From Bacillota bacterium (lineage in GTDB: Bacteria > Bacillota_I > Bacilli_A > RF39 > UBA660): a stretch of 25,769 bases of DNA. The stretch's first letter is position 1; each line of letters begins with the position of its first letter. Position numbers and translations under genes: made by a program. Below the pieces are notes generated by a model that saw only the letters and a list, made by a program, of their open reading frames with translations, had not been told where the DNA came from and made no database searches. This document shows positions 11,899 through 25,617 of this stretch, in pieces. The stretch is from assembly GCA_015059245.1 (NCBI GenBank), contig SVAU01000017.1:1-25769 (forward strand). Direction: 5' to 3'.

Positions 11899-11970
11899 GT
11901 GTAAATAGAAATATAAAATAAATTGTCTTACTTATTTAGGTATGATAATCTTATAATAGGAGATGGTCTT

Positions 11971-12432
11971 ATGAATAATGGTGTACCACAAGGAATAGGT
12001 GTAGGAGTAGGTAATATTGATGTACTTAAAGGTACAGATATAGGTGTATTAAGAGATAAAGGTTCTTATGATAAATCTACTTATAAAAAAACTACTAAAC
12101 CAGATGGAACTGTAGTAGAAGAAGTTAAAATGAATCAACGTAATAAAAATGTTGGAGTTGTAGATTTAGAAACTCAAGGTGTTAATATTGGAGATAGAGC
12201 AGTTGATGTAGGAATAAGTGAAAAAGCCACTGAAGATGCTGTAGGTTTTGTAGATAGTATTTGGGGAACTAGACAAGCTGCTGGTATGATACAAAATAGA
12301 AGAGCTGAAGAAGTGAAATTAGAACAATTTAAAGCACAAAGAGAACTGCAATTACAAGAAGATTCAGTGCAAAGAAGATTATTACAAGAACAAATGTTAC
12401 AACAACAAAATGGTGTAGGTAGGAGTTTATAA
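11971..12432 (+). CDS. Hypothetical Gly-rich/coiled-coil protein (153 aa), first gene of a pair
   Basis: ATG 11971 has AGGAGAT (11958-11964) at proper distance; the longer frame from TTG 11923 runs through the putative promoter (TATAAT at 11952-11957) and is not used. The N-terminal third is Gly/Val-rich with short repeats (GIGVGVGNIDVLKG, DIGVLRDKG), followed by YKKTTKPDGTVVEEV. The C-terminal third, from about residue 105, is a Gln/Glu/Arg-rich helix (QNRRAEEVKLEQFKAQREL and onward), ending QQQNGVGRSL. There is no export signal. The family is not recognised. Its TAA stop shares the sequence TAATG with the start of the next gene, so the two are translated together. Confidence 0.65.
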   Translation: MNNGVPQGIGVGVGNIDVLKGTDIGVLRDKGSYDKSTYKKTTKPDGTVVEEVKMNQRNKNVGVVDLETQGVNIGDRAVDVGISEKATEDAVGFVDSIWGTRQAAGMIQNRRAEEVKLEQFKAQRELQLQEDSVQRRLLQEQMLQQQNGVGRSL

Positions 12433-12707
12433 TGAGAGAGGATTTTGTAAATGCTTTTAGACAATTAAGTCTAGATGATAAAAGAAACCAATTAAATAAT
12501 GAAATGGCTACTACATTTAGAGTACTTAATATATTAAAACAAAATATTGGTATGCCACTTAATGATGACCAAATAAGAAATTATCACATAGCAGATGATG
12601 CTGGTTTAAGTGAAAGTCAGATGTTAGATTATATCTATTTTGATTTCTATAGAATACAAAGAAGTTTATTAGATGTAGCTGATATTTTATTAAAAAATAA
12701 TAATTAA
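12432..12707 (+). CDS. Small partner-type protein A (91 aa), paralogous to 22699 and 25348
   Basis: The ATG at 12432 overlaps the previous stop (TAATG), and the stretch TAGGAG (12418-12423) serves as ribosome binding site. The 91 residues are predicted helical. The opening FRQLSLDDKRNQLNNEM resembles FSKLNSNTKRDEIMYEV of the 22699 product and YKKLDVNTQREELSSLL of the 25348 product. The ending GLSESQMLDYIYFDFYRIQ resembles GLGEEEFLNSIYAYLISTK and NMTESEMLTFIYEDLWNIK. So three members of one small family occur in this window, each the second gene of a pair. The function is unknown; by context it may bind, chaperone or neutralise the product of the gene before it. No known domain recognised. Confidence 0.75.
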   Translation: MREDFVNAFRQLSLDDKRNQLNNEMATTFRVLNILKQNIGMPLNDDQIRNYHIADDAGLSESQMLDYIYFDFYRIQRSLLDVADILLKNNN

Positions 12708-12718
12708 TTATAGTTATG

Positions 12719-12745
12719 AAAAGTACATTTTATATGTACTTTTTT
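12719..12745 (+). terminator. Terminator of the 11971-12707 operon
   Basis: AAAAGTACAT (12719-12728) pairs with ATGTACTTTT (12734-12743) around a 5-base loop, with extra T residues. Confidence 0.85.
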
Positions 12746-12749
12746 AAAT

Positions 12750-12778
12750 TTGTAAAATATATAGTTTTATGTTAGAAT
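12750..12778 (+). promoter_or_regulatory. Promoter of the giant phosphoesterase gene
   Basis: -35 TTGTAA (12750-12755), 17-base spacer, extended -10 TGTTAGAAT (12770-12778). It is one of the few units here with a recognisable -35. Confidence 0.6.
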
Positions 12779-12802
12779 ATCAATCGTTTTGGGGGAATGG
12801 TT

Positions 12803-15800
12803 ATGTGGTTTATTACAAAGAAAATACTTGATTATGTATGTAATGAAGATATACCAAAAGAAAAAAGAATAAAAGTTATAAAAAATTATAAAGTTAGAAT
12901 TATAGATGAACTAATTAAATTAAACCCTGAAGATTTAATTAAGTTATTATTTAATTCTAAAGTATTAAGAGAATTAAAGCTAATTATATGTGAAGAAATA
13001 GATAAGTTATCAACAGAATATGGAGATAGTAGTAAGAAAACTATTAAAGTATTAATTGAAGAATTTAAGAAACTAAATATATATAAAGATAAATATTTAT
13101 TATCAGATACTTGTCCTAATGTATTTAAAAAAGAAATAATTGATACTTTATATCCTAAAGGCTATGAAGTAGTTAAGAAAGGTAAAATATCTAAGAAGTT
13201 AAAGAAAGTCATTATTAAAGTATCTTTAAGTAATTATGAATTAGAAAAACTATTAAAGAGTGATATATCAATAGAATTAAAAGAATATATTATTGATGAA
13301 TGTATTAATAGTTATTATGAGATAAGATCTGTATTAGATGATGATAATATTGATCAAAAATTAAAGAATAGACTTATAGATAATAAGATTAATAAAGATA
13401 ATTTATTTAATGTTTTAGAGTATGCTAATACTTCAACTATAGAATATGTATTAGAATGTAAGTCTAAAGAATTTGAAGAATATTTAAATACTTTAACACC
13501 TAGTAATGTATTAAGAGTTATTAATAGTAGTAGTACACCTAAAAGGATTGTAGATTATATATTAAAGTATAAAAGAGAAATAATAGAAACTGCTGTTGAT
13601 AAGTGTTGGAGAAATGATTTAGAAGAAACTATTTCTAGAGAAAAGAATGTTGAAATATTAAAGTTAGTATTTGAAAGAAGACATAAAGCTGTATTTAGAG
13701 TTATTAACAAGTTATTTGATTTTCAATTAATATCGTTTCTTGCTTTAGAACATTTACCTCAAGAATATAAAGATTATATTATTAATGAGAGAAAGTGGAC
13801 CTTAAATAGTTATATTAAAAGAATGAGTCCATGGGATTGTGTTAAACATACTAAGAGAGATAGTTTTGTACCAGACGAAATTAAAGAAAGAATATTTGAA
13901 ACTAGAAAAAAAGATATACTAAACTATTATGTTAAAGAAGATGATGATGAAATAGTTAGTAGTATTAGAACTAGTGGATTATATCTTCCTATTAAGAAAA
14001 TGTTAATTACAGAAAGAATTAATATAAATAATATTTTTAAATTATTAAGTTATTATTATATAGATAAAGAAACTATAGATTTAATTATAGAATTAAAGAA
14101 AGATATATTAGTACAAATATTTTTAGCGCATGATAATAATAAACTATTTAAAGGTAAGTTTGATGTATTAAAAGATGAAGTAATAGAAAGACTACTAAAT
14201 GCTAATGAAGATTTATTAAGAGATAGAGTTAATGGATTAGAAGAAGATGAATTATATAGTTATTTAAATCATGGTAAGGTATTAAATGTAGTTAAAAAGT
14301 TAATACTAGAAAGATTAGGTATTGAAAGAGATAATGCTAATAATGTATTAACATTAATTAATATGTATGATACTAATTTAGTATTAGATAATTATGAAAA
14401 TATTAAGGATTTAATATGTGGTTTAGGTATAGATTTTAATTCATTCTTACAATATGGTAGTGGTAGTAAGAAACATTCTAATTGGTTAAAGAATTTAATA
14501 GACATTATAAATAATGATGAGATAGGTGAATTTGCTTTTTGTAAAGATTACTTATTTATTAATTATTATAAGAATGATAGTGAAAATAGTGTTTACATGA
14601 TATCTAGTTTCTTAGAATATATAGATAATTTTAGTAAGTATAAAGAATTATTTATGAACTTAGTTGATGGTAAAGTTAAGTTGACTAAAGAAGATAAAGA
14701 TAATTTAAGATTCTTATTTAATGTTAGTGGTATTAGTAAAGATGATGCTCCTAAATCTATATATGATCTTAAGAAGTTTAAATTAGAATTATATAAAAGT
14801 TATATTAATCAAATAAAGAGTCCATCTGTTAGTATTTATACATTACAAAATATATTTAATAATATATTATTTTGTGATGCTAAAGATATACTTGATAATA
14901 TAGGTGGTACTGGTGCTTTAAGAACATTAAGAAAAGATAATATAGATAGTCCATCTGTAGTAGTTTATATAAATGAATTAATGTTATGTTCTTCTATTAT
15001 AGAGATGGTTAATTATACTAATAATGAAGAAGGACTTAAGAATGTATTAACTTATATATTTAGTGATATTGATTTATTAACTAAGATACAAAATATATTT
15101 TCTAGTTTTGATGATAAAGTAAGAAGAGTATATGAATTAGATTCTATGAATAATTTAACTACTATAAGTGAAGCTAGAAGATTAGGTATGTTAGATACTG
15201 AGTTATCAAATAAGTATGGTGGAGAAGTATTTAATTTTACTGATAAGAATTATTGTTTATATGGACATGTATTAAGTAGTAAAGAGAATATTGTAGATAT
15301 GATAGATGGTATATCTACGGGTAATAGTAATTTTATTTCTGTAAGTCCTGTTAGTTATAGAGGTCAAAAGTATTATTATGATAGAAATGATGTTATATTT
15401 GCTTATGATTTGTTACCAGTAGGTAGTTTTATATGTAGTTCTGTTGCTAATATGGGTACTAATTATTCAGTAAGTGCTAATAGTAGTGAAGTTGGTAATA
15501 TAAGAAGATCTCAAAGAGGTATTTTAGAAACTAGTGCTGTAGTAGAAAGAAACGCTGAAGCATTGTTATATAGAGAAGGTTTAAAACCATGTGGATTAAT
15601 ATTACCTGGTGGAAGAACTCCTTCTAAGAAAGAAATGGAAATACATGAGAGATATGGACTACCATTTATTATTACTCAAGAATTACATCAATCAATAGAT
15701 GATCCTAAGTATATGTTTGTTAATGATTTAACATTAGATACAGTAAGTACAGATTTAAGTGAATTAGAACGTATTGTTGATATGTTAAGACCTAATGTAA

Positions 15801-16687
15801 CTCATATAAAGGAAGATGATGAATATACAGGTAAAGAGATAGGTGTATTTGCTGATTGTCATTCTATGTATGAACCTACTTTGGCTATACTTGAAGATAT
15901 GAGTAGAAGAGGTATTAGTGATATATATTCTTTAGGAGATAATGTAGGATTAGGACCAAACCCAGTAGAAGTATTTGATTTACTAGAAGAATTTAAAGTT
16001 AAATCAGTAGCAGGTAATGCTGAATATTATAATACTATTGGAGTTGATGCATTCCCTTATCTAACTGATGGTAGATTAGATAGTCAAGTTTGGACTGAAA
16101 GAAAATTAGGCCCTGAAAGAATAAAGGAATTAAGAATGTATCCTGCATCAAGAGATATTGTACTAGGCAATAAAAAAGTAGCTTTATGTCATTTTGCTAA
16201 TGATGTAAGATGGGATTTTAGAGATAGAAGTGTACATACATATGCTGCAACTGGTGCAAGTAATGTAGATCAATTAAGATATACAAATAGTGAAGAATAT
16301 TTAAAAAAGATTACTAATTGTATAGTAAGTAATAAAGGTAGTATATCTTTAGTAAAAGGATATATGGCTTCTCGTGATGAACCTATATTTGGAGGTAAAT
16401 TAGTTACTGATTATGACTATGTATTACAAGGACATTATCATTTTGAATTAGAGGATATGTTAGATGATACAAAGGTACATACATTAAGAGCAGTAGGTAT
16501 GGGTTATGAAGGACATGATTCAGATAATGAAGCTTGTTATTATATTTTAAGAGAAAGAAAAGATGGGGATATAGATATTGAAAAGGTATATGTTCCATTT
16601 AATAGAAATGCATTATTATCAAGTATTCATACTTGTGATTTACCTTCTAAAGATAGAGTATTAAGTTACGTAAGAAAATCTAGATAA
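12803..16687 (+). CDS. 1294-aa solenoid protein with C-terminal calcineurin-like phosphoesterase
   Basis: The start is ATG 12803, six bases after GGGGGA (12791-12796); ATG 12797 is too close to that site. Residues 1 to about 780 are a long chain of helix pairs with loose repeats of the type 'LL...v..ElK..Ii.e', suggesting an alpha-solenoid for binding a partner. Residues about 780-985 form a domain with YGHVLSSKENIVDMIDGIS, then SVANMGTNYSVSANSSEV, ILETSAVVERNAEALLYRE and GLILPGGRTP, which I cannot name. Residues about 1010-1294 are a metallophosphoesterase: FADCHS (D and H metal ligands near 1017-1019), SLGDNVG, VAGNAE (usual GNHD/E site), CHF and the closing GHYHFE (GHxH). All metal-binding motifs are kept, so it is probably an active phosphatase or phosphodiesterase. 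No signal peptide. An HD phosphohydrolase gene follows. The substrate is unknown. Confidence 0.8.
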   Translation: MWFITKKILDYVCNEDIPKEKRIKVIKNYKVRIIDELIKLNPEDLIKLLFNSKVLRELKLIICEEIDKLSTEYGDSSKKTIKVLIEEFKKLNIYKDKYLLSDTCPNVFKKEIIDTLYPKGYEVVKKGKISKKLKKVIIKVSLSNYELEKLLKSDISIELKEYIIDECINSYYEIRSVLDDDNIDQKLKNRLIDNKINKDNLFNVLEYANTSTIEYVLECKSKEFEEYLNTLTPSNVLRVINSSSTPKRIVDYILKYKREIIETAVDKCWRNDLEETISREKNVEILKLVFERRHKAVFRVINKLFDFQLISFLALEHLPQEYKDYIINERKWTLNSYIKRMSPWDCVKHTKRDSFVPDEIKERIFETRKKDILNYYVKEDDDEIVSSIRTSGLYLPIKKMLITERININNIFKLLSYYYIDKETIDLIIELKKDILVQIFLAHDNNKLFKGKFDVLKDEVIERLLNANEDLLRDRVNGLEEDELYSYLNHGKVLNVVKKLILERLGIERDNANNVLTLINMYDTNLVLDNYENIKDLICGLGIDFNSFLQYGSGSKKHSNWLKNLIDIINNDEIGEFAFCKDYLFINYYKNDSENSVYMISSFLEYIDNFSKYKELFMNLVDGKVKLTKEDKDNLRFLFNVSGISKDDAPKSIYDLKKFKLELYKSYINQIKSPSVSIYTLQNIFNNILFCDAKDILDNIGGTGALRTLRKDNIDSPSVVVYINELMLCSSIIEMVNYTNNEEGLKNVLTYIFSDIDLLTKIQNIFSSFDDKVRRVYELDSMNNLTTISEARRLGMLDTELSNKYGGEVFNFTDKNYCLYGHVLSSKENIVDMIDGISTGNSNFISVSPVSYRGQKYYYDRNDVIFAYDLLPVGSFICSSVANMGTNYSVSANSSEVGNIRRSQRGILETSAVVERNAEALLYREGLKPCGLILPGGRTPSKKEMEIHERYGLPFIITQELHQSIDDPKYMFVNDLTLDTVSTDLSELERIVDMLRPNVTHIKEDDEYTGKEIGVFADCHSMYEPTLAILEDMSRRGISDIYSLGDNVGLGPNPVEVFDLLEEFKVKSVAGNAEYYNTIGVDAFPYLTDGRLDSQVWTERKLGPERIKELRMYPASRDIVLGNKKVALCHFANDVRWDFRDRSVHTYAATGASNVDQLRYTNSEEYLKKITNCIVSNKGSISLVKGYMASRDEPIFGGKLVTDYDYVLQGHYHFELEDMLDDTKVHTLRAVGMGYEGHDSDNEACYYILRERKDGDIDIEKVYVPFNRNALLSSIHTCDLPSKDRVLSYVRKSR

Positions 16688-16705
16688 GAGTATCTAGATT
16701 TTTTT
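16676..16705 (+). terminator. Terminator overlapping the giant gene's stop codon
   Basis: AAATCTAGATA (16676-16686), loop AGAG, TATCTAGATTT (16691-16701), then T residues to 16705. The TAA stop (16685-16687) is at the stem/loop boundary. Confidence 0.85.
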
Positions 16706-16713
16706 GTTATAAT
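16705..16713 (+). promoter_or_regulatory. Extended -10 promoter of the HD hydrolase gene
   Basis: TGTTATAAT begins with the last T of the terminator tract, 15 bases before the ATG at 16729. Confidence 0.65.
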
Positions 16714-16728
16714 AATTATGTGATGTTT

Positions 16729-17295
16729 ATGAAGGATAAGTTATATGAAATATTAATGGTAGATGATGTTGTGGATTCTATTAATAGTAATATAGATGTA
16801 TTACTTGAAATGATACCTGAGATAGAAGATATGATAGGTTTTCAACATAATCATCCACATCATCATTTAGATGTATGGAAACATACGTTGTTGGCTTTAA
16901 GTTTATCTAAGTTAGATTTTGATACTAGAATAGTATTGTTGTTACACGATATTGGTAAACCTTTTAGTTATCAAGATGATGAAGTAAGACATTTTCATGG
17001 ACATGCAGATGTATCTAGTAATATGAGTGTAGGTATATTTAATAGATTAGGTTTTAATAGTGAAGAAGTAGATGAGTTAACATATTTGATTAGAGAACAT
17101 GATACTGAAATTACTAAAGAAGATATAGATACTAATATAGATTTATGTATTAAGAGATTTGGTATTCAATTTTGTGATGCATTAGCTCATAATCCTACTA
17201 AGTTAAAGAAGAGAATAGAGTACTTAGTTAAATTAAGTAAGGAATTAGGTGTAGATAAAGATACACATTATGTAAAACGATTAGAAAAATATTGA
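16729..17295 (+). CDS. HD-domain phosphohydrolase
   Basis: 188 residues from ATG 16729, chosen because GTGAT (16720-16724) stands at the distance seen for the AGGTGAT sites in this window; GTG 16720 and ATG 16723 lie inside that site. The HD-domain metal ligands are visible: an early H in the cluster HNHPHHHLDVWKHT (about 43-56), the HD doublet in LLLHDIGKP, H in HFHGHADVS, and a later EHD. This resembles the HD domains next to CCA-adding nucleotidyltransferases and of small metal-dependent phosphohydrolases. The likely reaction is hydrolysis of a phosphate ester or nucleotide; the substrate is not known. The stop is TGA followed at once by TAA, one of only two TGA stops here. It has its own promoter but follows the giant phosphoesterase, so a joint nucleotide-processing role is possible. 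Confidence 0.8.
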   Translation: MKDKLYEILMVDDVVDSINSNIDVLLEMIPEIEDMIGFQHNHPHHHLDVWKHTLLALSLSKLDFDTRIVLLLHDIGKPFSYQDDEVRHFHGHADVSSNMSVGIFNRLGFNSEEVDELTYLIREHDTEITKEDIDTNIDLCIKRFGIQFCDALAHNPTKLKKRIEYLVKLSKELGVDKDTHYVKRLEKY

Positions 17296-17320
17296 TAAAT
17301 TAAAAATTTTTCTGTATAAT
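17292..17320 (+). promoter_or_regulatory. metK promoter
   Basis: TTGATA (17292-17297), 17-base spacer, TATAAT (17315-17320). The -35 overlaps the TGA stop of the HD hydrolase gene. It is the best consensus promoter in the window and starts just before the riboswitch. Confidence 0.8.
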
Positions 17321-17326
17321 ACAAAT

Positions 17327-17449
17327 ATATCTTATAAGGAGTGATGGAGGGACTAGCCCTGTGAAGTCACACCAACCTATTAGATTAGGTGGTAAAGCTA
17401 GCACGATGAGATAACTTTAGTACTCAAAGTTATCTTGGGTATTTTTTTT
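17327..17449 (+). ncRNA. SAM-I (S-box) riboswitch with terminator, upstream of metK
   Basis: The conserved S-box core is visible: AAGGAGTGATGGAGGGACTAG near 17336, CCCTGTGAAGTCACACCAACC, then GGTGGTAAAGCTAGCACGATG. P1 is TATCTTAT (17328-17335) with ATGAGATA (17406-17413). P3 closes with CCTA/TAGG. CTAGC in P2 can pair with GCTAG near 17398, as in the S-box pseudoknot. Two exclusive hairpins follow: the antiterminator AGATAACTTT (17409-17418) with AAAGTTATCT (17426-17435), and the terminator AGTACTCAA (17419-17427) with TTGGGTATT (17435-17443) plus the T-run to 17449. When SAM binds, P1 takes 17409-17413, the antiterminator is lost and the terminator forms, so metK is shut off at high SAM. This is the standard S-box logic and fits the downstream SAM synthetase gene. 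Confidence 0.9.
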
Positions 17450-17460
17450 ATGAGATAACT
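17406..17460 (+). repeat. 11-base direct repeat of the riboswitch switching strand
   Basis: ATGAGATAACT occurs at 17406-17416 (P1 3' strand and antiterminator 5' arm) and again at 17450-17460, after the terminator T-run and one base before the metK AAGGAGG site. The second copy can pair with AGTTATCT at 17428-17435. Confidence 0.75.
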
Positions 17461-17475
17461 GAAGGAGGAAGAAAG

Positions 17476-18495
17476 ATGAAATATTATAGTAATGAAATCG
17501 TTTTTAGAGGACATCCTGATAAAGTTTGTGATCAAATAAGTGATGCTTTATTAGATGAATGCTTAAGACAAGATAAAAATAGTAGATGTGGTATCGAAGT
17601 AATGGGTGGTAAAGGAAAAGTATTCGTTACTGGTGAAGTTACTACTAATGCTAAATTAGACGTAGAAAAAATTGCTAAAAGAGTACTTGGTGATATTGGA
17701 TACGATACTGATTTAGAAATCGTTGATAACTTAGGAAAACAAAGTGTAGATATTGCACTTGGTACTAATGATGAAGTTGGTGGAGCTGGAGATAACGGAA
17801 TGATGTTCGGTTATGCTTGTAAAGATACTGATAAGTATTTACCAACTGCAATGGTTATCTTACAAGAACTTAGTCAAGCTTATGATGAATTAAGAAAGAA
17901 AGATAATAGATTCTTACCAGATGGTAAAGCACAAATTACTGGTAAATATGAAAATGATAAATTAGTAAGTATTAAAGCATTTACAATTTGCTATCAAAAT
18001 ACTGAAGAAGAACGTGAAGAAACTGATAAGATATTAGTTGATATCGTTGAAGATATTATTGCTAAATACGGAGTTAAAGTAGAAGAATATTTAATTAATC
18101 CTACTGGTAGATTCTGTATTGGTGGATTTACAGGTGATGCTGGTTTAACTGGTAGAAAAATAGTTGTTGATAGTTATCAATCATTTGCTAATGTAGGTGG
18201 TGGAGCATTCTCTGGAAAAGATCCTACTAAAGTAGATAGAAGTGGTGCTTACAAAGCTAGAGAAATAGCTAAAGATATCGTTAAGAATGGAGACTATAAT
18301 TGGTGTTCAGTACAACTATCTTACGCTATAGGAAAAGAAGAACCATTAGCTATTTATATTAGTACTGATAAAGGTGATGTTGAACCTAGTAGAGAACTAT
18401 TTGAAGAATGTAAACCTAGAAACATTATTAAAGATTTAGGATTAAAAGAAACTTGCTACGAAGATAGAGCTAAGTTTGGACATTTTAGAGATTAA
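17476..18495 (+). CDS. metK: S-adenosylmethionine synthetase (methionine adenosyltransferase), compact form
   Basis: Makes SAM from methionine and ATP in the cytoplasm. The family signatures are present: GHPDKVCDQISDALLD (12-27, with the HPDK ATP-binding motif), GAGDNGMMFGYA (103-114, normally GAGDQGLMFGYA), GDAGLTGRKIVVDSY and GGGAFSGKDPTKVDRSGAY (P-loop-like). It has 339 residues against the usual 380-400, shortened mainly in the middle and C-terminus, so it belongs to a compact MetK branch; no motif is missing. The start ATG 17476 follows AAGGAGG. It is controlled by the SAM riboswitch before it. Codon choice differs from its neighbours, with more ATC, TAC, TTC and CGT-type codons, as expected for a highly expressed gene. 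A GAAA-loop terminator closes the unit. Confidence 0.95.
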   Translation: MKYYSNEIVFRGHPDKVCDQISDALLDECLRQDKNSRCGIEVMGGKGKVFVTGEVTTNAKLDVEKIAKRVLGDIGYDTDLEIVDNLGKQSVDIALGTNDEVGGAGDNGMMFGYACKDTDKYLPTAMVILQELSQAYDELRKKDNRFLPDGKAQITGKYENDKLVSIKAFTICYQNTEEEREETDKILVDIVEDIIAKYGVKVEEYLINPTGRFCIGGFTGDAGLTGRKIVVDSYQSFANVGGGAFSGKDPTKVDRSGAYKAREIAKDIVKNGDYNWCSVQLSYAIGKEEPLAIYISTDKGDVEPSRELFEECKPRNIIKDLGLKETCYEDRAKFGHFRD

Positions 18496-18496
18496 T

Positions 18497-18525
18497 AAAA
18501 AGTAGAGGAAACTCTACTTTTTTTT
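18497..18525 (+). terminator. metK terminator
   Basis: AAAAAGTAGAG (18497-18507), GAAA tetraloop, CTCTACTTTTT (18512-18522), T-run to 18525. The stem AAAAGTAGAG/CTCTACTTTT is repeated at 20472-20495. Confidence 0.9.
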
Positions 18526-18533
18526 GTTATAAT
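18525..18533 (+). promoter_or_regulatory. Extended -10 promoter of the natAB-type operon
   Basis: TGTTATAAT begins at the last T of the metK terminator and ends 19 bases before the ATG at 18553. The longer ORF start at 18532 falls inside this -10 and is not real. Confidence 0.65.
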
Positions 18534-18552
18534 GATACTAGGAGTTGATAGA

Positions 18553-19311: not shown

Positions 19312-20464
19312 TATATTAATAACAATAAAAAAAGAATTAAGATCTATATTTAGAGATAAGAAAACTATTTGTTATATATTTGGTTTTCCTTTTATAATAG
19401 CATTTATGATTTTCTTAATGGGATATATGGAAGATGCTATATTAGAAGAATCTGATGGAGAGATAAAATATTCTATTGGAGTTAATTATGAAGTTAATGA
19501 AATAGAAAAAGAATTAATGAAAGAAAATTCACTAGCTTATGTTGAATATGATAGTGTAGATAAGATGAAGGAAGCTTATCATAATGGAGAAATAGAAGCA
19601 TATTTAGATTATGATAAAGATAAGAAGATATATTATATTTATACTGATGAAAATATGATGGATTCACAAGTTTCTTCATATGTCATGTATTATTTAGATA
19701 GTTATAATTCTTATTTAGGTAATATGTATTTAGTTAATCAAGGTATTAATGTAGAAGATGTTTATAATAATTTTACTTATGAATTAAAGACTACCAGTGG
19801 TGAAGAAATATCTGAAAGTGATATGATTATAGAGTTAGTTATGAATATGTCATTTACTTATATAATTATGGTAATTGCTTTAGCATCTGTTAATATGGCT
19901 ACTACAGCAATAGCTTCTGAAAAAGAAAATGGTACATTAGAAACTATATTAACATTACCTATTACTACAAAGGAATTAATTATAGGTAAATACTTAGCTA
20001 CATTCTTAATAGGATTTATAGCATCATTAGTAGGTTTTATTATTACATTAGGTAGCTTTGGTATTGCAACTAATATGTTTACTGTATATGAAGAATTTAG
20101 TATGGGATTTAGTGTTGTATTATTTGGTGTTGTAATATGTTTTGTAGCTTCTTTATTAATAGCAGCACTTGCTATATTATTAACATCATCTGCTAAGTCA
20201 TATAAAGAATCACAAGCTTCTGGAAGTATATTACAAACTATATGTGTATTACCATTATTCTTGTCTATGATTAGTTTTGATACACCTAGATTGTTATATG
20301 TAGTACCAATACTTAGTCATACTACTGTATTAATGGAATTATATTCTGGTACATGTAATTATATTAATTTATTATTAACTGTTGGTTCTACATTAGTTTA
20401 TATAATTATTATATTATATGTGCTTATTAAGAAATTTAAATCTGAAAAGGTATTATTTAGTTAA
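19298..20464 (+). CDS. natB: ABC-2 type transporter permease (NatB-type)
   Basis: 388 residues. One transmembrane helix near 23-43 (CYIFGFPFIIAFMIFLMGY) is followed by an outside domain of about 130 residues rich in Asp, Glu and Tyr, then five hydrophobic helices from about 185 to 380. The motif ASEKENGTLETILTLPIT before the second group of helices is typical of ABC-2 exporters of the NatB/YhaP kind ('.E.k.gTle.lLt.Pis'). It pairs with the preceding ATPase, by a 14-base overlap, to form an efflux complex, probably for Na+ or an antimicrobial compound. ATG 19298 has a strong AGGAGG. The unit ends in a terminator that carries the same stem as the metK terminator. Confidence 0.85.
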   Translation: MNKNNILITIKKELRSIFRDKKTICYIFGFPFIIAFMIFLMGYMEDAILEESDGEIKYSIGVNYEVNEIEKELMKENSLAYVEYDSVDKMKEAYHNGEIEAYLDYDKDKKIYYIYTDENMMDSQVSSYVMYYLDSYNSYLGNMYLVNQGINVEDVYNNFTYELKTTSGEEISESDMIIELVMNMSFTYIIMVIALASVNMATTAIASEKENGTLETILTLPITTKELIIGKYLATFLIGFIASLVGFIITLGSFGIATNMFTVYEEFSMGFSVVLFGVVICFVASLLIAALAILLTSSAKSYKESQASGSILQTICVLPLFLSMISFDTPRLLYVVPILSHTTVLMELYSGTCNYINLLLTVGSTLVYIIIILYVLIKKFKSEKVLFS

Positions 20465-20471
20465 TATATGT

Positions 20472-20497
20472 AAAAGTAGAGGGAACTCTACTTTTCT
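20472..20497 (+). terminator. Terminator of the natAB-type operon
   Basis: AAAAGTAGAG (20472-20481), GGAA tetraloop, CTCTACTTTT (20486-20495). The T-run is short. Confidence 0.85.
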
Positions 20498-20506
20498 TGT
20501 GGATAA
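20498..20506 (-). promoter_or_regulatory. Consensus DnaA box
   Basis: TGTGGATAA is the exact complement of the DnaA consensus TTATCCACA. It lies just upstream of the -10 of the next gene, and CTTGTGG is repeated 11 bases apart (20496 and 20507), one helical turn. It may be chance or a DnaA-regulated promoter. Confidence 0.4.
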
Positions 20507-20510
20507 CTTG

Positions 20511-20519
20511 TGGTATACT
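20511..20519 (+). promoter_or_regulatory. Extended -10 promoter of the 93-aa protein gene
   Basis: TGGTATACT is a TGnTATAnT-type -10, 25 bases before the ATG at 20545. Confidence 0.5.
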
Positions 20520-20544
20520 TATATTAAGAATATGGAGGAATATT

Positions 20545-20826
20545 ATGGCTAATTTGGAAAGAATTAATGTAAGAGATGAAAATGGTAATAGAATTTTTAT
20601 TTCTATGTTAGGAATGTTTGAAATACCAGATCTAGAAAAGAAATATATTATGTATGGTATTGTTAATGAAGATGAAAGTAAAGAAACTGGTGGAGTGTTA
20701 CTAGGTGAAGTAGTAGGTGAAGGAGAAGATATGCAAATACTAGGTATCTTACCTGAAGAAAAAGATATGGTAGTTGCTTATTATAATGAGATATCTACAC
20801 AGTTAGGAGAAGATGATGATGAATAA
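20545..20826 (+). CDS. Small acidic protein (93 aa), possibly DUF1292-like
   Basis: ATG 20545 has GGAGGA (20534-20539); the longer frame from 20497 runs through the promoter. The 93-residue product is acidic and probably all beta: NVRDENGNRIFISMLGMFEI, then a strand KKYIMYGIVNEDES, GGVLLGEVVGEG and a final helix-like DMVVAYYNEISTQLGEDDDE. The layout (conserved '..deng......l..f...dkkYi.y.....e..i....') recalls DUF1292 proteins common in Bacillota, but the match is weak. It is the first gene of a pair: the next gene starts within its last codons. No enzymatic motif is seen and the role is unknown. Confidence 0.65.
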   Translation: MANLERINVRDENGNRIFISMLGMFEIPDLEKKYIMYGIVNEDESKETGGVLLGEVVGEGEDMQILGILPEEKDMVVAYYNEISTQLGEDDDE

Positions 20827-21229
20827 TGAAGGTAGAGAAACTGTAATAGTTCCTGAAAAGAAAGAGAAAATAGAACGTATTAAAAGAAAATATCAAAATA
20901 TGGAAATGGCTGATGATACAGCTAAGAAGATTAAGAATTTAGAAGTTGTTAATAATATCTTAGTTGCTGCTACTGGTGTAGTTGGTATTTTAACTGTAGT
21001 TAATTATTTTGTACCAGATCCAGTACCTGGAATTGATGAAGCTGTTATGACAGGTGCTACTGCATTATTAGGTAGTGCTTCTACAATAGTTAAGAATAAG
21101 ATTAATGATTTAGCTGCAACTGGTACTACTGAAGTTAAAATGGAAGAAGTTACTAAGTTAAGTGATCAATTATCTAACGTAGCAAGAAAAGTTGCTGAAA
21201 AGAAAAATGGACAAGTAAAAGCACAATAG
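20819..21229 (+). CDS. Hypothetical protein with hydrophobic centre (136 aa)
   Basis: Three ATGs in a row (20813, 20816, 20819) follow TAGGAGA (20804-20810); spacing favours 20819, or 20816. All lie within the end of the preceding gene, so the two are translationally coupled. The N-terminus is a charged helix (KKEKIERIKRKYQNMEM). The centre has two moderately hydrophobic stretches (NNILVAATGVVGILTVVNYF and MTGATALLGSASTIV) joined by PDPVPGIDE. The end is charged again. It may be a membrane hairpin with both ends inside the cell. I do not recognise the family. A weak terminator overlaps its TAG stop. Confidence 0.6.
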   Translation: MNNEGRETVIVPEKKEKIERIKRKYQNMEMADDTAKKIKNLEVVNNILVAATGVVGILTVVNYFVPDPVPGIDEAVMTGATALLGSASTIVKNKINDLAATGTTEVKMEEVTKLSDQLSNVARKVAEKKNGQVKAQ

Positions 21230-21243
21230 TTTTTGTGTTTTTT
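21217..21243 (+). terminator. Weak terminator overlapping a stop codon
   Basis: AAAA-G-CACAA (21217-21226, one bulged G) can pair with TTGTG-TTTT (21233-21241), followed by T residues. The TAG stop (21227-21229) lies in the loop. Confidence 0.5.
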
Positions 21244-21267
21244 CTTTTTAGAAAAATAGGTGGTTTT

Positions 21268-22266
21268 ATGTTTAAAAATAAAATACTTTTAATAACAGGT
21301 GGTACTGGTTCATTTGGTAATGCAGTACTTAAAAGATTTTTAGATACTGATATAAAAGAGATAAGAATATTTTCTAGAGATGAAAAGAAACAAGATGATT
21401 TGAGAAAGAAATATAACAATGATAAGTTAAAGTTTTATATTGGTGATGTAAGAGATTTACGTAGTGTAGAGAACGCTATGAGAGGTGTAGATTATGTATT
21501 TCATGCTGCAGCTTTAAAACAGGTACATACATGTGAATTTTATCCTATGGAAGCAGTTAAAACTAATATACTTGGTACTGAAAATGTATTGGATGCTGCT
21601 ATAAATAATAATGTTAAGAAAGTAATTGTACTTAGTACTGATAAAGCAGCATATCCAGTAAATGCTATGGGTATGAGTAAAGCATTGATGGAGAAGGTTG
21701 CTATTGCTAAAGCGAGAGAACAAGATAATACAATTATATGTAGAACTAGATATGGTAATGTTTTAGGTAGTAGAGGATCTGTTGTACCATTATTTATTAA
21801 ACAAATAGAAGAGGGTAAAAGTATTACTATTACTAATCCTGATATGAGAAGATTTATGATGAGTTTAGATGAAGCAGTAGAACTTGTGTTATATGCGTTT
21901 TTACACGGTAAACAAGGAGATTTATTTGTACAAAAAGCACCATCTGTAACGATAGATATATTAGCTAAAGCAGTTAAAAGTCTTAAGAAAAGTAAAGTAC
22001 CTATTACATATATTGGTTCTAGACATGGTGAAAAGATAAATGAAGTATTAATTACTAAAGAAGAAATGATTAATGTAGAAGATTTAGGTGAATACTATAG
22101 AGTACCTATGGATAGTAGAACACTTAATTATAATGAATGTAATAAAGAAAGATTAAATAAAGAGATAGATATATGTGAATATAATTCTAGTAATACTAGA
22201 AAATTAACTTTAAAAGAAACTAAAGAAATGTTAAGTAAATTAGATTGTTTTAATTCTAATAATTAG
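21268..22266 (+). CDS. capE: CapE-type UDP-N-acetylglucosamine 4,6-dehydratase/5-epimerase
   Basis: 332 residues, an extended short-chain dehydrogenase. The NAD(P)-binding loop is GGTGSFG (11-17). IFSRDEKKQDDLRKKY, YVFHAAALKQV, STDKAAYP (123-130) and RYGNVLGSRGSV follow the CapE/FnlA/WbjB pattern closely. As in CapE, the usual catalytic Tyr of YxxxK is Met: M134 and K138 (MGMSK). The family converts UDP-GlcNAc to a UDP-2-acetamido-2,6-dideoxy-4-hexulose with inversion at C5, the first step towards UDP-L-FucNAc for capsule or O-antigen. The later enzymes (CapF, CapG) are not in this window, so the gene stands apart from any glycan cluster. I start at ATG 21268 with AGGTGG before it; the frame from 21235 runs through the preceding terminator. 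Confidence 0.88.
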   Translation: MFKNKILLITGGTGSFGNAVLKRFLDTDIKEIRIFSRDEKKQDDLRKKYNNDKLKFYIGDVRDLRSVENAMRGVDYVFHAAALKQVHTCEFYPMEAVKTNILGTENVLDAAINNNVKKVIVLSTDKAAYPVNAMGMSKALMEKVAIAKAREQDNTIICRTRYGNVLGSRGSVVPLFIKQIEEGKSITITNPDMRRFMMSLDEAVELVLYAFLHGKQGDLFVQKAPSVTIDILAKAVKSLKKSKVPITYIGSRHGEKINEVLITKEEMINVEDLGEYYRVPMDSRTLNYNECNKERLNKEIDICEYNSSNTRKLTLKETKEMLSKLDCFNSNN

Positions 22267-22283
22267 GTATACTTTTATTAGAA
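22254..22283 (+). other. Hairpin spanning the capE stop, without T-run
   Basis: TTCTAATAA (22254-22262) can pair with TTATTAGAA (22275-22283) around a 12-base loop. The loop holds TATACT (22268-22273), a possible -10 for the next gene. With no T-run it is not a normal terminator. Confidence 0.35.
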
Positions 22284-22296
22284 TATAGGTGATGTT

Positions 22297-22686
22297 ATGA
22301 AATTTGAACAATATATGAAAATGATAGAAGATACTCATGGTTCTCATTTAAAAGGAGAATTAAATGAAATAGAATATATTAGTTCTTATAATGAATTAAT
22401 TGATATAGTAGTAGATTCTGATACTTTAGATGAAGAAGAGAAAAGACAACTTATAGGAGTGATTAGAACTAAGATAGGTCAAATTCCTGTAGTAGAGAAT
22501 ATGAAAAGAGAAGCTAAGAATCAAGAGATACAAGCAAAGGAAGAAGCATTTATAGAAGCCAAGAAAAGATTCAAAGGTTTAAGTATATTTCAAAGAGTTA
22601 AATTAAATTTAAAAGGACAAGGACCTGATCAATTACATAGTACACTTGGTACTGTAGAAGAAATAAATAGTTTATATAGAAGATAA
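22297..22686 (+). CDS. Hypothetical helical protein (129 aa), first gene of a pair
   Basis: ATG 22297 has AGGTGAT (22287-22293). The 129-residue product is charged and mainly helical: MKFEQYMKMIEDTHGSH, a Glu/Asp-rich middle (VVDSDTLDEEEKRQLIGVI), a Lys/Glu/Ala coiled stretch near 68-92 (KREAKNQEIQAKEEAFIEA), then a Phe/Lys-rich patch FKGLSIFQRVKLNLKGQG that could sit on a membrane surface. There is no signal peptide. I do not know the family. The next gene, a member of the small paralogous family, follows after 12 bases with GAAGGG between, so the two form an operon. Confidence 0.65.
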   Translation: MKFEQYMKMIEDTHGSHLKGELNEIEYISSYNELIDIVVDSDTLDEEEKRQLIGVIRTKIGQIPVVENMKREAKNQEIQAKEEAFIEAKKRFKGLSIFQRVKLNLKGQGPDQLHSTLGTVEEINSLYRR

Positions 22687-22698
22687 GAAGGGTTACGT

Positions 22699-22947
22699 AT
22701 GGAAGAATATAATGAGTTGGTAGAATCTTTTAGTAAATTAAATTCTAATACTAAAAGAGATGAAATTATGTATGAAGTACAAGAATTATTTGAATTATTT
22801 CATATATTAACTGGTGGTAGTGATACTTTATTAACAAGTGAAATGGATGAATATGAAACTGGTCTTGGTGAAGAAGAATTCTTAAATTCTATATATGCTT
22901 ATTTAATATCTACTAAAGAAAATATAGGTAAATATTTGGATAAATAA
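22699..22947 (+). CDS. Small partner-type protein B (82 aa), paralogous to 12432 and 25348
   Basis: 82 residues, acidic and helical. It keeps the two conserved blocks of the family: an N-terminal SFSKLNSNTKRDEIMYEV (about 10-27) and a C-terminal GLGEEEFLNSIYAYLISTK (about 55-73), with a variable middle. It is the second gene of a pair, as are the other two members, while the first genes of the three pairs are unrelated in sequence as far as I can see. The ribosome binding site is GAAGGG (22687-22692). No membrane segment or enzymatic motif is seen. A partner, chaperone or immunity role is inferred from position only. Confidence 0.7.
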   Translation: MEEYNELVESFSKLNSNTKRDEIMYEVQELFELFHILTGGSDTLLTSEMDEYETGLGEEEFLNSIYAYLISTKENIGKYLDK

Positions 22948-22973
22948 AAGTCACTTTTATAGTGGCTTTTTTT
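22946..22973 (+). terminator. Terminator of the 22297-22947 operon
   Basis: AAAGTCAC (22947-22954) pairs with GTGGCTTT (22962-22969, one G-T pair) around a 7-base loop, with a T-run to 22973. It starts within the TAA stop. Confidence 0.8.
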
Positions 22974-22981
22974 GATATAAT
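22973..22981 (+). promoter_or_regulatory. Extended -10 promoter of the phosphodiesterase gene
   Basis: TGATATAAT begins at the last T of the terminator tract, 18 bases before the ATG at 23000. Confidence 0.6.
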
Positions 22982-22999
22982 AATTAGTAGGTGATAGGT

Positions 23000-24100
23000 A
23001 TGATAAAAGCAAATTATGAGGATTGTATTACTAATTTGGCTTGTAGTATAAGAAAGTATTTTGAAGTAGAATATAAACATAATACTATAAAAGAAGTAGA
23101 TGAAGTATTAGAAAGAGTAAAACCTAAGAATGTAGTAGTAATACTATATGATGGTATGGGATTTAATATACTTAATAGAAACTTAGATAAAGATAGTTTC
23201 TTAGTAAAAAATTGTGTAAGAGATTATTCTTCTGTAGTACCATGTACTACTACTGCTAGTACAACTTCTATGTTATCTGGGATGAATCCATGTGAACATG
23301 GATGGTTAGGTTGGGATTTATATATTAAACCTGAAGATTTAATAGTAACTATGTTTACTAATAAATTAAAAGATACTAGTATTGATGCTAGAGATTATAA
23401 TGTAGTAAGAAAGTATTATGATTATAATACTATTACTGATGATATTAATAATGCAGGTAAGTATAGTTCTAAGATATTATTTCCTTTTGGTGAAGGAGCT
23501 TATAGTAATATAAAAGATATGAATAATAGAATACTTAGTGAATGTAAGAGACCTGGTAAAAAATATATTTATGCTTATTATGAAGATCCTGATTATATAA
23601 TGCATGAAATGGGTACTGATCATATAAAAGTTAATAAAGTTATTAACAAGATAAATAAAGCTACTGAAGAATTATGTTCTAAGTTAGGTAAAGATACTGT
23701 TGTAATAGTTACAGCTGATCATGGTCATTTAAATAGTAGTAGTTTATTACTAAGCGATTATGAAGATTTTTATAATACTTTAGATGGTGATGTATGGGTT
23801 GAAGGTAGAATGTGTGCTTTTAAAGTTAAAGAAGGTATGCATGATACTTTTAAAGAATTGTTTAATAAGTATTTTGGTAATGATTTTATCTTGAAGAGTA
23901 AGAAAGAAATAATAGATGAAAAGATATTTGGAGAAGGGGAAGAACATAAATTATTTAGAGATTCTTTAGGTGACTATTTTGGGTTAGCTATAAGTGATAA
24001 ATTCTTTAAATATAGTATTTATTCTACTGATTTAAAATCTATGCATGCGGGATTTACTGAAGATGAAATGAGAATTCCTTTAATAATTATTTCTAAGTAG
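23000..24100 (+). CDS. Alkaline phosphatase-superfamily protein (type I phosphodiesterase/nucleotide pyrophosphatase)
   Basis: 366 residues from ATG 23000, which follows AGGTGAT; the GTG at 22991 lies within that site. The two-metal site of the superfamily is visible: LYDGMGFN (D51), the nucleophile Thr in PCTTTASTTS (about 81-90), DPDYIMHEMGTDH (an Asp and His pair), TADHGH (Asp-His) and HAGFTEDEMRIPL (last His). This matches PF01663 phosphodiesterases/pyrophosphatases, which cleave phosphodiester or pyrophosphate bonds of nucleotides or lipid head groups. There is no signal peptide or membrane helix, so it is probably cytoplasmic, which is less common in this group. It has its own promoter and no clear terminator. 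The substrate is unknown. Confidence 0.85.
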   Translation: MIKANYEDCITNLACSIRKYFEVEYKHNTIKEVDEVLERVKPKNVVVILYDGMGFNILNRNLDKDSFLVKNCVRDYSSVVPCTTTASTTSMLSGMNPCEHGWLGWDLYIKPEDLIVTMFTNKLKDTSIDARDYNVVRKYYDYNTITDDINNAGKYSSKILFPFGEGAYSNIKDMNNRILSECKRPGKKYIYAYYEDPDYIMHEMGTDHIKVNKVINKINKATEELCSKLGKDTVVIVTADHGHLNSSSLLLSDYEDFYNTLDGDVWVEGRMCAFKVKEGMHDTFKELFNKYFGNDFILKSKKEIIDEKIFGEGEEHKLFRDSLGDYFGLAISDKFFKYSIYSTDLKSMHAGFTEDEMRIPLIIISK

Positions 24101-24106
24101 GTAATA

Positions 24107-24115
24107 TGATATAAT
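24107..24115 (+). promoter_or_regulatory. Extended -10 promoter of the lipase-like operon
   Basis: TGATATAAT is 27 bases before the ATG at 24143. No terminator separates it from the gene before. Confidence 0.6.
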
Positions 24116-24142
24116 ATTTTTAATAATAGTGAGAGTGATTGT

Positions 24143-25351
24143 ATGAGTAATGGTATTAATTTAGAAAATCTAAATGATTTACAAAAGTCTTTATTGACTC
24201 AAATATCTTATTTGAATATAAATGATGAAGGTAGAGAAAAGATATTAAATGGTGGGATAAGTGTTTCAGAGTTATCTACATATTTAGCTAATCCTGATGA
24301 TATGTTTGTAGGAGATAATCTTTTTGATAATAATGTTACTCATTCAGTTGTTGATAAAGTAGTTGGAGATAAAGGGATTATTACTCATAAAGAGTTAGTT
24401 GATTGTTTAATTGAAAATGGTTTAAGCGAAATATTTATTACTAATATTAGTAATAAAAAGGGTACATTAACTAATGGATTTCAAGCGTTAACTTTTGTTG
24501 ATTCTTATGGTAATACAGGTATTTCATATAGAGGTAGTGATTTTAATTTAACTCAGGGTGGAATTAATGATTGGTTAGAAGCTGATGTATTAGAGTATTT
24601 TACTGGTTCATCATCACAAGTAAGAGAAGCTTTAAAATACTTTGAAGATAATAAGAATAGTAATGGTAATAATTTTTTATATGGACATTCATTAGGAGGC
24701 AATTTAACTTCGCATACATATTTGCATAATCATGATGAAATAAGAGAAGCATTTACTGTTAATGGTAATCCTATTAATCAAAAATTATTAGATACTCCAG
24801 AAAAGGTTGAAGCTTTTAATGATCCTGAAAAATATCATTGTAATGTTATTGGTGGAGATATAGTAGGTCATTTTAAAAGTTGTTCTTCATATAGAAATAA
24901 TGTTAAATATATTCATAATAATGGAGAGTACACTAATACTCCTGTTTCTGCACACATGATTCAAGCAGCAGAATTTGATGAAAATGGTAATTTTGTTGTG
25001 ATAGATGAAAAAGAAATGGTAAAAGAGATGGGACTTGGTTATGCACTTTTAATGACTTTTAGTCAAGGAGTTAGGGAAATACTTAATACTATGGAACGAA
25101 ATATTGCTAAAGACGAGTATAGAAAAATGTTTGAATTATATAAAGTTTCTTTATTAGAACATTTAGATACATTAGAAAAGAAATTTGGTAATACAGCTCC
25201 TACTTTAAATGATAGTGATAACTTAGTATTAATTGATGAATTTCATGCGGCTGCACTTAATAATGAGAAAGAATTTATAGAAACTATATCTAAATATTTA
25301 GGAAATAATATTGTCGGTCAAGATATGATTCAAGGTAGTATTAAGAAATGA
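24143..25351 (+). CDS. Lipase-like alpha/beta hydrolase (DUF2974/Mbeg1-like)
   Basis: 402 residues. Residues about 112-290 show a class 3 lipase-like alpha/beta hydrolase: TFVDSYGNTGISYRGSD (strand and oxyanion region), then a helix, then the nucleophile elbow FLYGHSLGGNLTSH (S183 in GHSLGG). An Asp and His further on (for example GGDIVGHF or SAHM) could complete the triad. This resembles the DUF2974/Mbeg1-like family. Residues 1-110 are helical with no signal peptide, and 300-402 are a charged helical tail. The codon style (more GTT, ATT, TTT) differs from its neighbours, hinting at acquisition. The stop TGA overlaps the next ATG (ATGA). A lipase followed by a small coupled gene suggests an effector with a partner or immunity protein, but no secretion signal supports this directly. 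Confidence 0.75.
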   Translation: MSNGINLENLNDLQKSLLTQISYLNINDEGREKILNGGISVSELSTYLANPDDMFVGDNLFDNNVTHSVVDKVVGDKGIITHKELVDCLIENGLSEIFITNISNKKGTLTNGFQALTFVDSYGNTGISYRGSDFNLTQGGINDWLEADVLEYFTGSSSQVREALKYFEDNKNSNGNNFLYGHSLGGNLTSHTYLHNHDEIREAFTVNGNPINQKLLDTPEKVEAFNDPEKYHCNVIGGDIVGHFKSCSSYRNNVKYIHNNGEYTNTPVSAHMIQAAEFDENGNFVVIDEKEMVKEMGLGYALLMTFSQGVREILNTMERNIAKDEYRKMFELYKVSLLEHLDTLEKKFGNTAPTLNDSDNLVLIDEFHAAALNNEKEFIETISKYLGNNIVGQDMIQGSIKK

Positions 25352-25617
25352 ATAAAAATATGATGGATTTATATAAAAAATTGGATGTTAATACTCAAAG
25401 AGAAGAATTAAGTTCTTTATTAATAAAGATAGATATGTTATTAAATGGGGCTATTCAACATGAAGAGTTAAAAGATATTACAGGTGTTAAGAACTATAAT
25501 TGTAGTGATGAACAAAATATTAATATGACTGAAAGTGAAATGTTAACATTTATTTATGAAGATTTATGGAATATAAAGAATAAAATATTGTTAATATTAT
25601 CAGAACATAATAAATAG
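25348..25617 (+). CDS. Small partner-type protein C (89 aa), paralogous to 12432 and 22699
   Basis: The ATG overlaps the lipase stop by four bases (ATGA), so translation is coupled. The 89-residue product has the family's two blocks: LYKKLDVNTQREELSSLL (about 8-25) and NMTESEMLTFIYEDLWNIK (about 59-77), with a variable, Asn-rich middle. It is predicted helical and soluble. As the second gene after a likely lipase it is the best case for a partner or immunity role in this family; the other two members follow unrelated first genes. No known domain is recognised. Confidence 0.75.
   Translation: MNKNMMDLYKKLDVNTQREELSSLLIKIDMLLNGAIQHEELKDITGVKNYNCSDEQNINMTESEMLTFIYEDLWNIKNKILLILSEHNK

What the first reader, a model, noticed from the sequence alone, without database searches (positions are those of the whole stretch)
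12432..25617. Three diverged copies of a small protein family, each second in a gene pair
The products at 12432-12707 (91 aa), 22699-22947 (82 aa) and 25348-25617 (89 aa) share two blocks: 'F/Y-x-x-L-(4)-K/Q-R-x-x-L/I' near the N-terminus and 'L/T-x-E-x-x-M/L/F-L-(2)-I-Y-x-x-L/F' near the C-terminus. Each follows, overlapping or within 12 bases, a different first gene (Gly-rich coiled-coil protein, helical protein, lipase-like protein). A conserved second partner with variable first genes is how effector/immunity, effector/adaptor or secretion-chaperone systems look. I know of no name for this family.
Basis: partly seen in the sequence, partly recalled or inferred. Interest (0 to 1): 0.7.

Follow-up and report, generated by a model that had tools for sequence, protein, structure and literature searches.

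The report
Tail-partner gene pairs in uncultured Bacilli
In an uncultured group of small-genome bacteria, many unrelated proteins, including a lipase, carry a short C-terminal tail and are encoded right beside a small helical protein that goes with the tail rather than with the rest of the protein, which looks like a dedicated partner for delivering or placing different enzymes.

Summary
The three small proteins belong to one unnamed family: 326 proteins at E<=1e-3, found in 48 of 268 genomes sampled from one order of Bacilli, with no Pfam or PHROGs family shared by its members. Members directly follow a same-strand gene in 76 of 83 cases, against 59 of 167 for other small ORFs.

Among pairs whose bodies are not homologous, partner similarity tracks tail similarity (rho 0.18, 0 of 2000 permutations). 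The lipase's tail recurs on an unrelated dGTPase-like protein whose small partner is close to the lipase's. This favours a tail-specific adaptor or chaperone over an immunity protein.

Closest known case: the type VII 'reverse' lipase TslA with its 3' partners TlaA1/TlaA2. Carriers are enriched for EssC (31 of 39; 35 of 48), but 13 of those 48 lack it, and 11 EssC-negative carriers scanned also lack WXG100. The window's own genome is not held. Binding and secretion were not tested. Tail-specific partner: likely. Type VII export: leading idea, unproven.

The parts
11923..12432 (+). Pair 1, first gene (169 aa from a TTG start; Gly-rich N-part, Gln-rich helical C-part); no domain match
12280..12429 (+). 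C-terminal tail of pair 1's first protein (last 50 aa), type A-like, ending in NGVGRSL
   Evidence: score 48.4 against 33.4 +/- 3.1 for shuffles, 0 of 1000; the type A tail HMM does not report it at E<=10
12432..12707 (+). Pair 1, small partner (P0001, 91 aa, type A)
22297..22686 (+). Pair 2, first gene (129 aa, helical); no domain match above cut-off
22555..22683 (+). C-terminal tail of pair 2's first protein (residues 87-129), type B, ending in INSLYRR
   Evidence: type B tail HMM built without the window, E 5.8e-8 among 2702 ORFs; BLASTP to the C-termini of L153 (2e-5) and L163 (8e-4) first proteins
22699..22947 (+). Pair 2, small partner (P0002, 82 aa, type B)
24143..25351 (+). Pair 3, first gene: Mbeg1-like (DUF2974) alpha/beta-hydrolase lipase, 402 aa, inferred triad Ser183-Asp239-His271
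25034..25348 (+). C-terminal helical extension of the lipase (residues 298-402), low model confidence; its last 50 aa are the tail, ending in IQGSIKK
25348..25617 (+). Pair 3, small partner (P0003, 89 aa, type A)

Best explanation
Each small protein is a dedicated partner (adaptor or chaperone) of the protein encoded just before it, and it recognises that protein's C-terminal tail: roughly a helix, a flexible linker and an end that is usually basic. The N-terminal body (lipase, dGTPase-like, transglutaminase-like, helicase, mostly unknown) is interchangeable cargo. The most likely use of the pair is targeting for export by the type VII secretion system present in about half of these genomes, in the reverse layout (targeting part at the C-terminus, partner gene at the 3' end) known for TslA with TlaA1/TlaA2. 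Shown: the family, the pairing, the recurring tails, the tail-partner correlation. Inferred: binding, chaperone role, export. I put the tail-specific partner at about 0.75 and type VII export at about 0.4; the confidence given is for the whole statement.
For: Pairing 49 of 53 and 27 of 30 members within -35 to +15 nt, baseline 59 of 167. Tails recur on different bodies and the lipase tail recurs on the dGTPase-like L105 (0 of 2000 shuffles, best of 75 first-gene tails). Partner similarity tracks tail similarity among pairs with non-homologous bodies (rho 0.183, 0 of 2000 permutations), the preceding segment hardly does (rho 0.057, 60 of 1000). A G-hydrophobic-basic end is enriched in a second set of loci (10 of 27 against 8 of 225). 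No N-terminal hydrophobic segment in 48 of 49 first proteins by a simple hydropathy scan. EssC enriched in carriers: 31 of 39, 35 of 48. Layout and lipase body as in TslA (PMC10730906).
Against: 13 of 48 carriers lack EssC, and WXG100 was found in 0 of 11 EssC-negative carriers scanned (one of the 11 was recognised as a carrier only). 11 EssC loci fetched hold no member at E<=0.05; pairs sit among housekeeping-like genes. EssC enrichment is not corrected for kinship, and the two samples overlap. One partner, not two; no immunity-like lipoprotein gene recognised beside the lipase. No relation to WXG100 proteins found by profile or fold. A helicase (L167) is an odd secreted cargo. The correlation is modest, and the type A tail HMM misses window pair 1 and the lipase.
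Confidence: 0.42

Rival explanations
1. A cytoplasmic tail-partner system without export: the small protein holds, places or controls enzymes inside the cell, for example keeping a defence enzyme silent until a trigger.
For: Carriers without EssC and WXG100; dGTPase-like, helicase and lipase bodies resemble known anti-phage enzymes (PADLOC dGTPase 2.6e-15 for L105, PbeA-like 1.5e-23 for L167); no link to type VII loci in most genomes.
Against: EssC enrichment among carriers; window lipase and its partner match no PADLOC model; some first genes are conserved between species and sit among housekeeping-like genes rather than in defence islands (seen by eye).
Confidence: 0.33
2. Effector and immunity: the small protein neutralises the toxin encoded before it.
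For: Tight two-gene layout; lipase body.
Against: One partner family goes with a lipase, a dGTPase-like, a transglutaminase-like and other bodies, and follows the tail, not the body.
Confidence: 0.08
3. Cargo of a protein shell: the C-terminal end is a loading peptide and the small protein assists.
For: Short C-terminal peptide with a G-hydrophobic-basic end recalls encapsulin loading peptides (recalled).
Against: Encapsulin family PF04454 in 0 of 44 genomes, 29 of them then known as carriers. Other shells were not searched.
Confidence: 0.02
4. The small genes are unrelated and their position is the usual operon crowding.
For: Other small ORFs also follow a same-strand gene closely in 59 of 167 cases; P2-P3 similarity alone is weak.
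Against: 76 of 83 members do so (p 1e-18); family shown by profiles.
Confidence: 0.01

Closest known systems
TslA with TlaA1 and TlaA2, type VIIb secreted lipase with reverse domain arrangement (PMC10730906: abstract, passages and one results section seen)
   Same: N-terminal lipase body, helical C-terminal part, small helical partner encoded directly 3'. The paper models the TslA lipase on 3O0D; our model's Foldseek list has 3o0d at rank 9.
   Different: One partner gene, not two; no recognisable immunity lipoprotein gene next to the lipase; tails occur on many non-lipase bodies; no binding or secretion data; no sequence comparison with TslA or TlaA was made here.
Reverse lipases at T7SSe and T7SSg loci (PMC11217815: abstract, part of the results and passages seen)
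   Same: C-terminal targeting domain proposed for type VII.
   Different: Those lie at type VII loci; here 11 EssC loci fetched hold no member, and the nearest pair is separated from EssC by a gene that looks like proline-tRNA synthetase (L142).
LXG toxins with Lap partners and WXG100 proteins (type VIIb)
   Same: Small helical partner (about 90 aa, predicted helical hairpin) for polymorphic cargo.
   Different: Shared part is C-terminal, partner gene 3'; no WXG100 match in 35 members scanned, profile-profile probability 1.1; no LXG match in 44 first proteins scanned.

Membership tests
TslA/TlaA reverse type VII substrates | N-terminal lipase body | tested here: met
   Window lipase: PF11187 above cut-off, conserved Ser183/Asp239/His271, lipase folds as best Foldseek hits. 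Not met for the other first genes.
TslA/TlaA reverse type VII substrates | Helical C-terminal targeting domain | tested here: inconclusive
   Predicted helical from residue 298, but mean pLDDT falls below 50 near the end.
TslA/TlaA reverse type VII substrates | Two small helical partner genes directly 3' | tested here: not met
   One small gene follows the lipase; only 152 nt of window remain beyond it. Elsewhere 11 of 76 members have a same-strand gene within 15 nt downstream, of which eight look DUF1292-like.
TslA/TlaA reverse type VII substrates | Partner binds the C-terminal domain | not testable with these tools
   Only indirect: tail-partner correlation.
TslA/TlaA reverse type VII substrates | Secretion depends on EssC | not testable with these tools
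   Co-occurrence only: 31 of 39 and 35 of 48 carriers have EssC; window genome not held.
TslA/TlaA reverse type VII substrates | Immunity lipoprotein gene 5' of the toxin gene | tested here: not met
   The gene 5' of the lipase is a type I phosphodiesterase-like protein (PF01663 6e-16).
WXG100 / Lap small partners | Sequence match to WXG100 | tested here: not met
   PF06013 not among matches of 35 members at E<=0.05; hhalign with 14 WXG100-like proteins probability 1.1. Lap families proper were not compared.
WXG100 / Lap small partners | Helical hairpin of about 100 aa | tested here: met
   Predicted helices 3-10, 14-38, 62-87, pLDDT 90. Shape alone is common.
WXG100 / Lap small partners | Solved WXG100 structure among fold matches | tested here: inconclusive
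   None in the lists; no confident match of any kind.
Effector-immunity pairs | Partner follows the toxic body | tested here: not met
   Partner follows the tail. Neutralisation itself was not tested.
Encapsulin cargo | Shell protein encoded in the genome | tested here: not met
   PF04454 in 0 of 44 genomes; control genomes rang in 3.

The most novel reading that the evidence does not exclude
A general, undescribed C-terminal targeting code in an uncultured order of Bacilli: interchangeable enzymes carry one of several short tails, each read by a single dedicated helical partner from one new family. It is either a broad class of reverse type VII cargo far beyond lipases, or a targeting route that works without type VII.
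Probability: 0.4. Interest if true: 0.8.

Novelty: new variant of a known kind. Interest (0 to 1): 0.58.

Why it matters
If right, the small gene is a marker that reveals cargo whose bodies match nothing known: 37 of 44 first proteins scanned have no Pfam match above cut-off. It would show that C-terminal targeting with a 3' partner is not confined to lipases. It makes a sharp prediction: a protein given one of these tails should bind the matching partner. It also gives a first handle on what these uncultured small-genome Bacilli deliver or organise.

Tried and rejected

Results against my reading or that failed: a looser end motif looked enriched in the first set (26 of 47 against 93 of 595) but not in the second (9 of 27 against 45 of 225, p 0.14), so I dropped it. 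The end motif kept was also chosen after looking at the first set; only the second set tests it, and some of its loci hold relatives of first-set genes. The type A tail HMM does not report window pair 1 or the lipase at E<=10. The lipase tail does not match type A tails (528 of 1000 shuffles reach it), and hhalign of lipase tails against type A tails gave nothing. In one search, 3 of 60 background tails had z above 3; that background was drawn from loci that include first genes used for training. By eye the L099 and L164 tails resembled the lipase tails; shuffles did not support it (188 and 456 of 2000). Two small helical ORFs in type VII loci (L138:1-360, L139:10823-11110) reached only E 0.02 and 0.01 with the A4 model.

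Rows set aside in the pairing counts: L099 and L164 (small gene first, next gene overlapping by 8 nt or abutting), L110 (+70), L122 (+47), L112 (no same-strand first gene), L156 (overlap of 71 nt in the longest reading), L168 (+28). L162 follows at +15 a gene that looks like tyrosyl-tRNA synthetase; it counts as paired by distance but has no tail-bearing partner. Two of 32 second-set regions (L165, L173) gave no member at E<=0.01. For the C-terminal motif 49 first proteins were cut to 47 with distinct tails. G265, among the 48 carriers, is a partial match with stops.

Full report
Where it is. No whole genome is held for the window. Some relatives of its proteins bear the source name 'Bacilli bacterium', and the one relative of pair 1 found among species genomes is an uncultured Bacilli MAG. 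I believe the group is the order called RF39 in GTDB; that name is recalled, not tested.

The observation. They are homologous: BLASTP 2e-7, 0.011 and 0.008; 0, 1 and 64 of 5000 shuffles reach the scores. The third link is weak by itself and is carried by profiles. No Pfam or NCBIfam model matches the three above cut-off. Of 35 diverse members scanned against Pfam and PHROGs, no family matched more than one.

The family. P0001 alone has 26 hits including itself. A profile of 8 members finds 326 proteins at E<=1e-3; the best 120 were listed, all without a Pfam domain. In genomes: 47 of 291 at E<=0.01 in one GTDB family, 48 of 268 at E<=0.001 in its order (the two samples overlap), and 5 of 179 in the class. 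Four of those five were already known from the order; the fifth is a partial match with stops. In these samples, then, the family looks confined to the order. G219 has four copies. Two broad types can be told by eye in the alignment: A (KNYD-like centre; window pairs 1 and 3) and B (NREI-like centre in most; window pair 2).

The pairing. In the first regions 49 of 53 members start -26 to +14 nt from the end of a same-strand gene. In regions fetched afterwards 27 of 30 start within -35 to +15. Other small ORFs of 66-113 aa in the same loci do so in 59 of 167 cases (Fisher p 1e-18). 36 of 83 overlap by exactly 1 or 4 nt. The small gene usually ends the unit: the median gap to the next gene is 70.5 nt, and 11 of 76 have a same-strand gene within 15 nt. 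In L099 and L164 the order is reversed; L112 and L162 have no tail-bearing neighbour.

The tails. First proteins range from 80 to 1391 aa. Of 44 scanned against Pfam, 7 have a match above cut-off: the window lipase; an HD/dGTPase-like protein (L105, PF01966 3.6e-9; NCBIfam dGTPase models down to 1.7e-17 but below cut-off); a transglutaminase-like protein (L157, 25.0 bits against 23); a helicase (L167); and three doubtful ones (L051, L122, L132). Yet C-termini recur. L117 (168 aa) and L124 (614 aa) align over their last 75 residues at 47% identity; L098 (953 aa) and L102 (80 aa) over a C-terminal stretch at 60%. A type B tail HMM built without the window finds pair 2's first protein at its extreme C-terminus (E 5.8e-8 among 2702 ORFs); BLASTP links it there to L153 and L163. 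Pair 1's tail resembles type A tails (0 of 1000 shuffles), though the type A HMM does not report it. The best hit of that HMM outside its training set is the gene just before the L001 pair (E 1e-7), so one partner may serve two tail proteins there. The lipase tail matches no type A tail but does match L105's (47.6 against a shuffle mean of 28.6, 0 of 2000), the best of 75 first-gene tails; 5 of 75 had z above 3, against 1 of 150 background tails. L105's partner is the second closest to P0003 among the loci.

Tail and partner go together. Among 49 pairs, partner similarity correlates with tail similarity when bodies are not homologous (1140 comparisons, rho 0.183, 0 of 2000 permutations); on the set used for the control the tail gives 0.157 and the segment just before it 0.057 (60 of 1000 permutations). 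The effect is clear but modest. A basic end is usual: K/R in the last two residues in 31 of 47 and 25 of 27 first proteins, against 264 of 595 and 102 of 225 other genes. The motif G.?[MILVSRP].?[KRL] at the end is in 18 of 47 and 10 of 27, against 23 of 595 and 8 of 225.

The lipase. 83 proteins were found. Most share the body up to about residue 320 and then diverge; many of those near 400 aa end in a basic motif. Ser183 and Asp239 are invariant and His271 nearly so in 40 aligned sequences; calling them the triad is my inference. The model is confident to about residue 295, helical and uncertain after it. Best Foldseek hits are a fungal lipase and a T6SS lipase effector at E 5.5e-4 and 6.6e-4, with TM-scores of 0.27 to 0.42.

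The small protein. Predicted as a short helix and two long helices with a loop (pLDDT 90). No confident structural relative; no detectable relation to 14 WXG100-like proteins of related genomes.

Type VII link. EssC at E<=1e-60 is in 141 of 291 and 128 of 268 genomes; in G018, G026, G219 and G013 WXG100 matches lie beside it. Carriers have EssC in 31 of 39 (E<=1e-4; p 2.7e-5) and 35 of 48 (p 1.2e-4); carriers new in the second sample in 18 of 27 (p 0.02). Kinship is not controlled. Against: 13 of 48 carriers lack EssC. Of 30 genomes scanned for WXG100, none of 11 EssC-negative carriers had it (ten chosen as such, plus G027, recognised as a carrier only), against 2 of 14 EssC-negative non-carriers and 4 of 5 EssC-positive genomes. 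Incomplete MAGs may explain some of this, hardly all; completeness was not given. 11 EssC loci hold no member at E<=0.05. Two pairs share a contig with EssC: L138, about 12 kb away, and L142, where a gene that looks like proline-tRNA synthetase separates a YukD-like gene from the pair. Two such cases among this many loci may be chance.

Comparison with print. TslA (PMC10730906; abstract, passages and one results section seen) is an N-terminal lipase whose helical C-terminal domain forms a complex with TlaA1 and TlaA2, encoded 3'. PMC11217815 (abstract, first part of the results and passages seen) reports similar reverse lipases at T7SSe and T7SSg loci. PMC12558993 was seen in passages. My searches listed no paper on reverse cargo other than lipases that I recognised; one paper holds both 'RF39' and 'type VII secretion' and was not opened. 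Other papers were seen as listings only, and most subscription papers are not held.

Judgement. Tail-specific partner: likely, about 0.75. Immunity: unlikely. Type VII export: the leading idea, about 0.4. A cytoplasmic role stays open.

Noticed in passing
L001:196-774 and 804-1742: Two consecutive first genes with type A tails stand before one small partner gene (tail HMM E 1e-7 for the upstream one).
   Followed up: partly
L104, L106, L120, L121, L126, L131, L142, L151: A third small gene that looks DUF1292-like follows the pair in 8 of 83 loci; one of three scanned matched PF06949 weakly (E 0.04, below cut-off).
   Followed up: partly
L112:6817-7104 and L162:6576-6860: Small family genes without a tail-bearing neighbour.
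   Followed up: no
window 2591-5329 and 5411-7315: Adjacent genes matching PADLOC models of a type IV restriction enzyme (1.8e-116) and of several DUF262-type defence proteins (best 8.3e-21).
   Followed up: no
L167:424-3339: A helicase with helicase-associated repeats as the first gene of a pair; it is distantly similar to the window's 2591-5329 helicase (BLASTP 2e-13).
   Followed up: partly
P0029-P0111: Lipase homologues carry different C-terminal ends after about residue 320, including acidic ends and basic ends without the tail.
   Followed up: no
L046-L050, L054-L059, L139-L141: Type VII loci of this order: EssC with a YukD-like gene in most, often WXG100-like pairs and LXG-like large genes (read by eye). 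I found no paper on them.
   Followed up: partly
window 12797-16687: 1296 aa protein 89 nt after pair 1's small gene, with a metallophosphoesterase domain near its C-terminus at the cut-off (27.0 bits).
   Followed up: no
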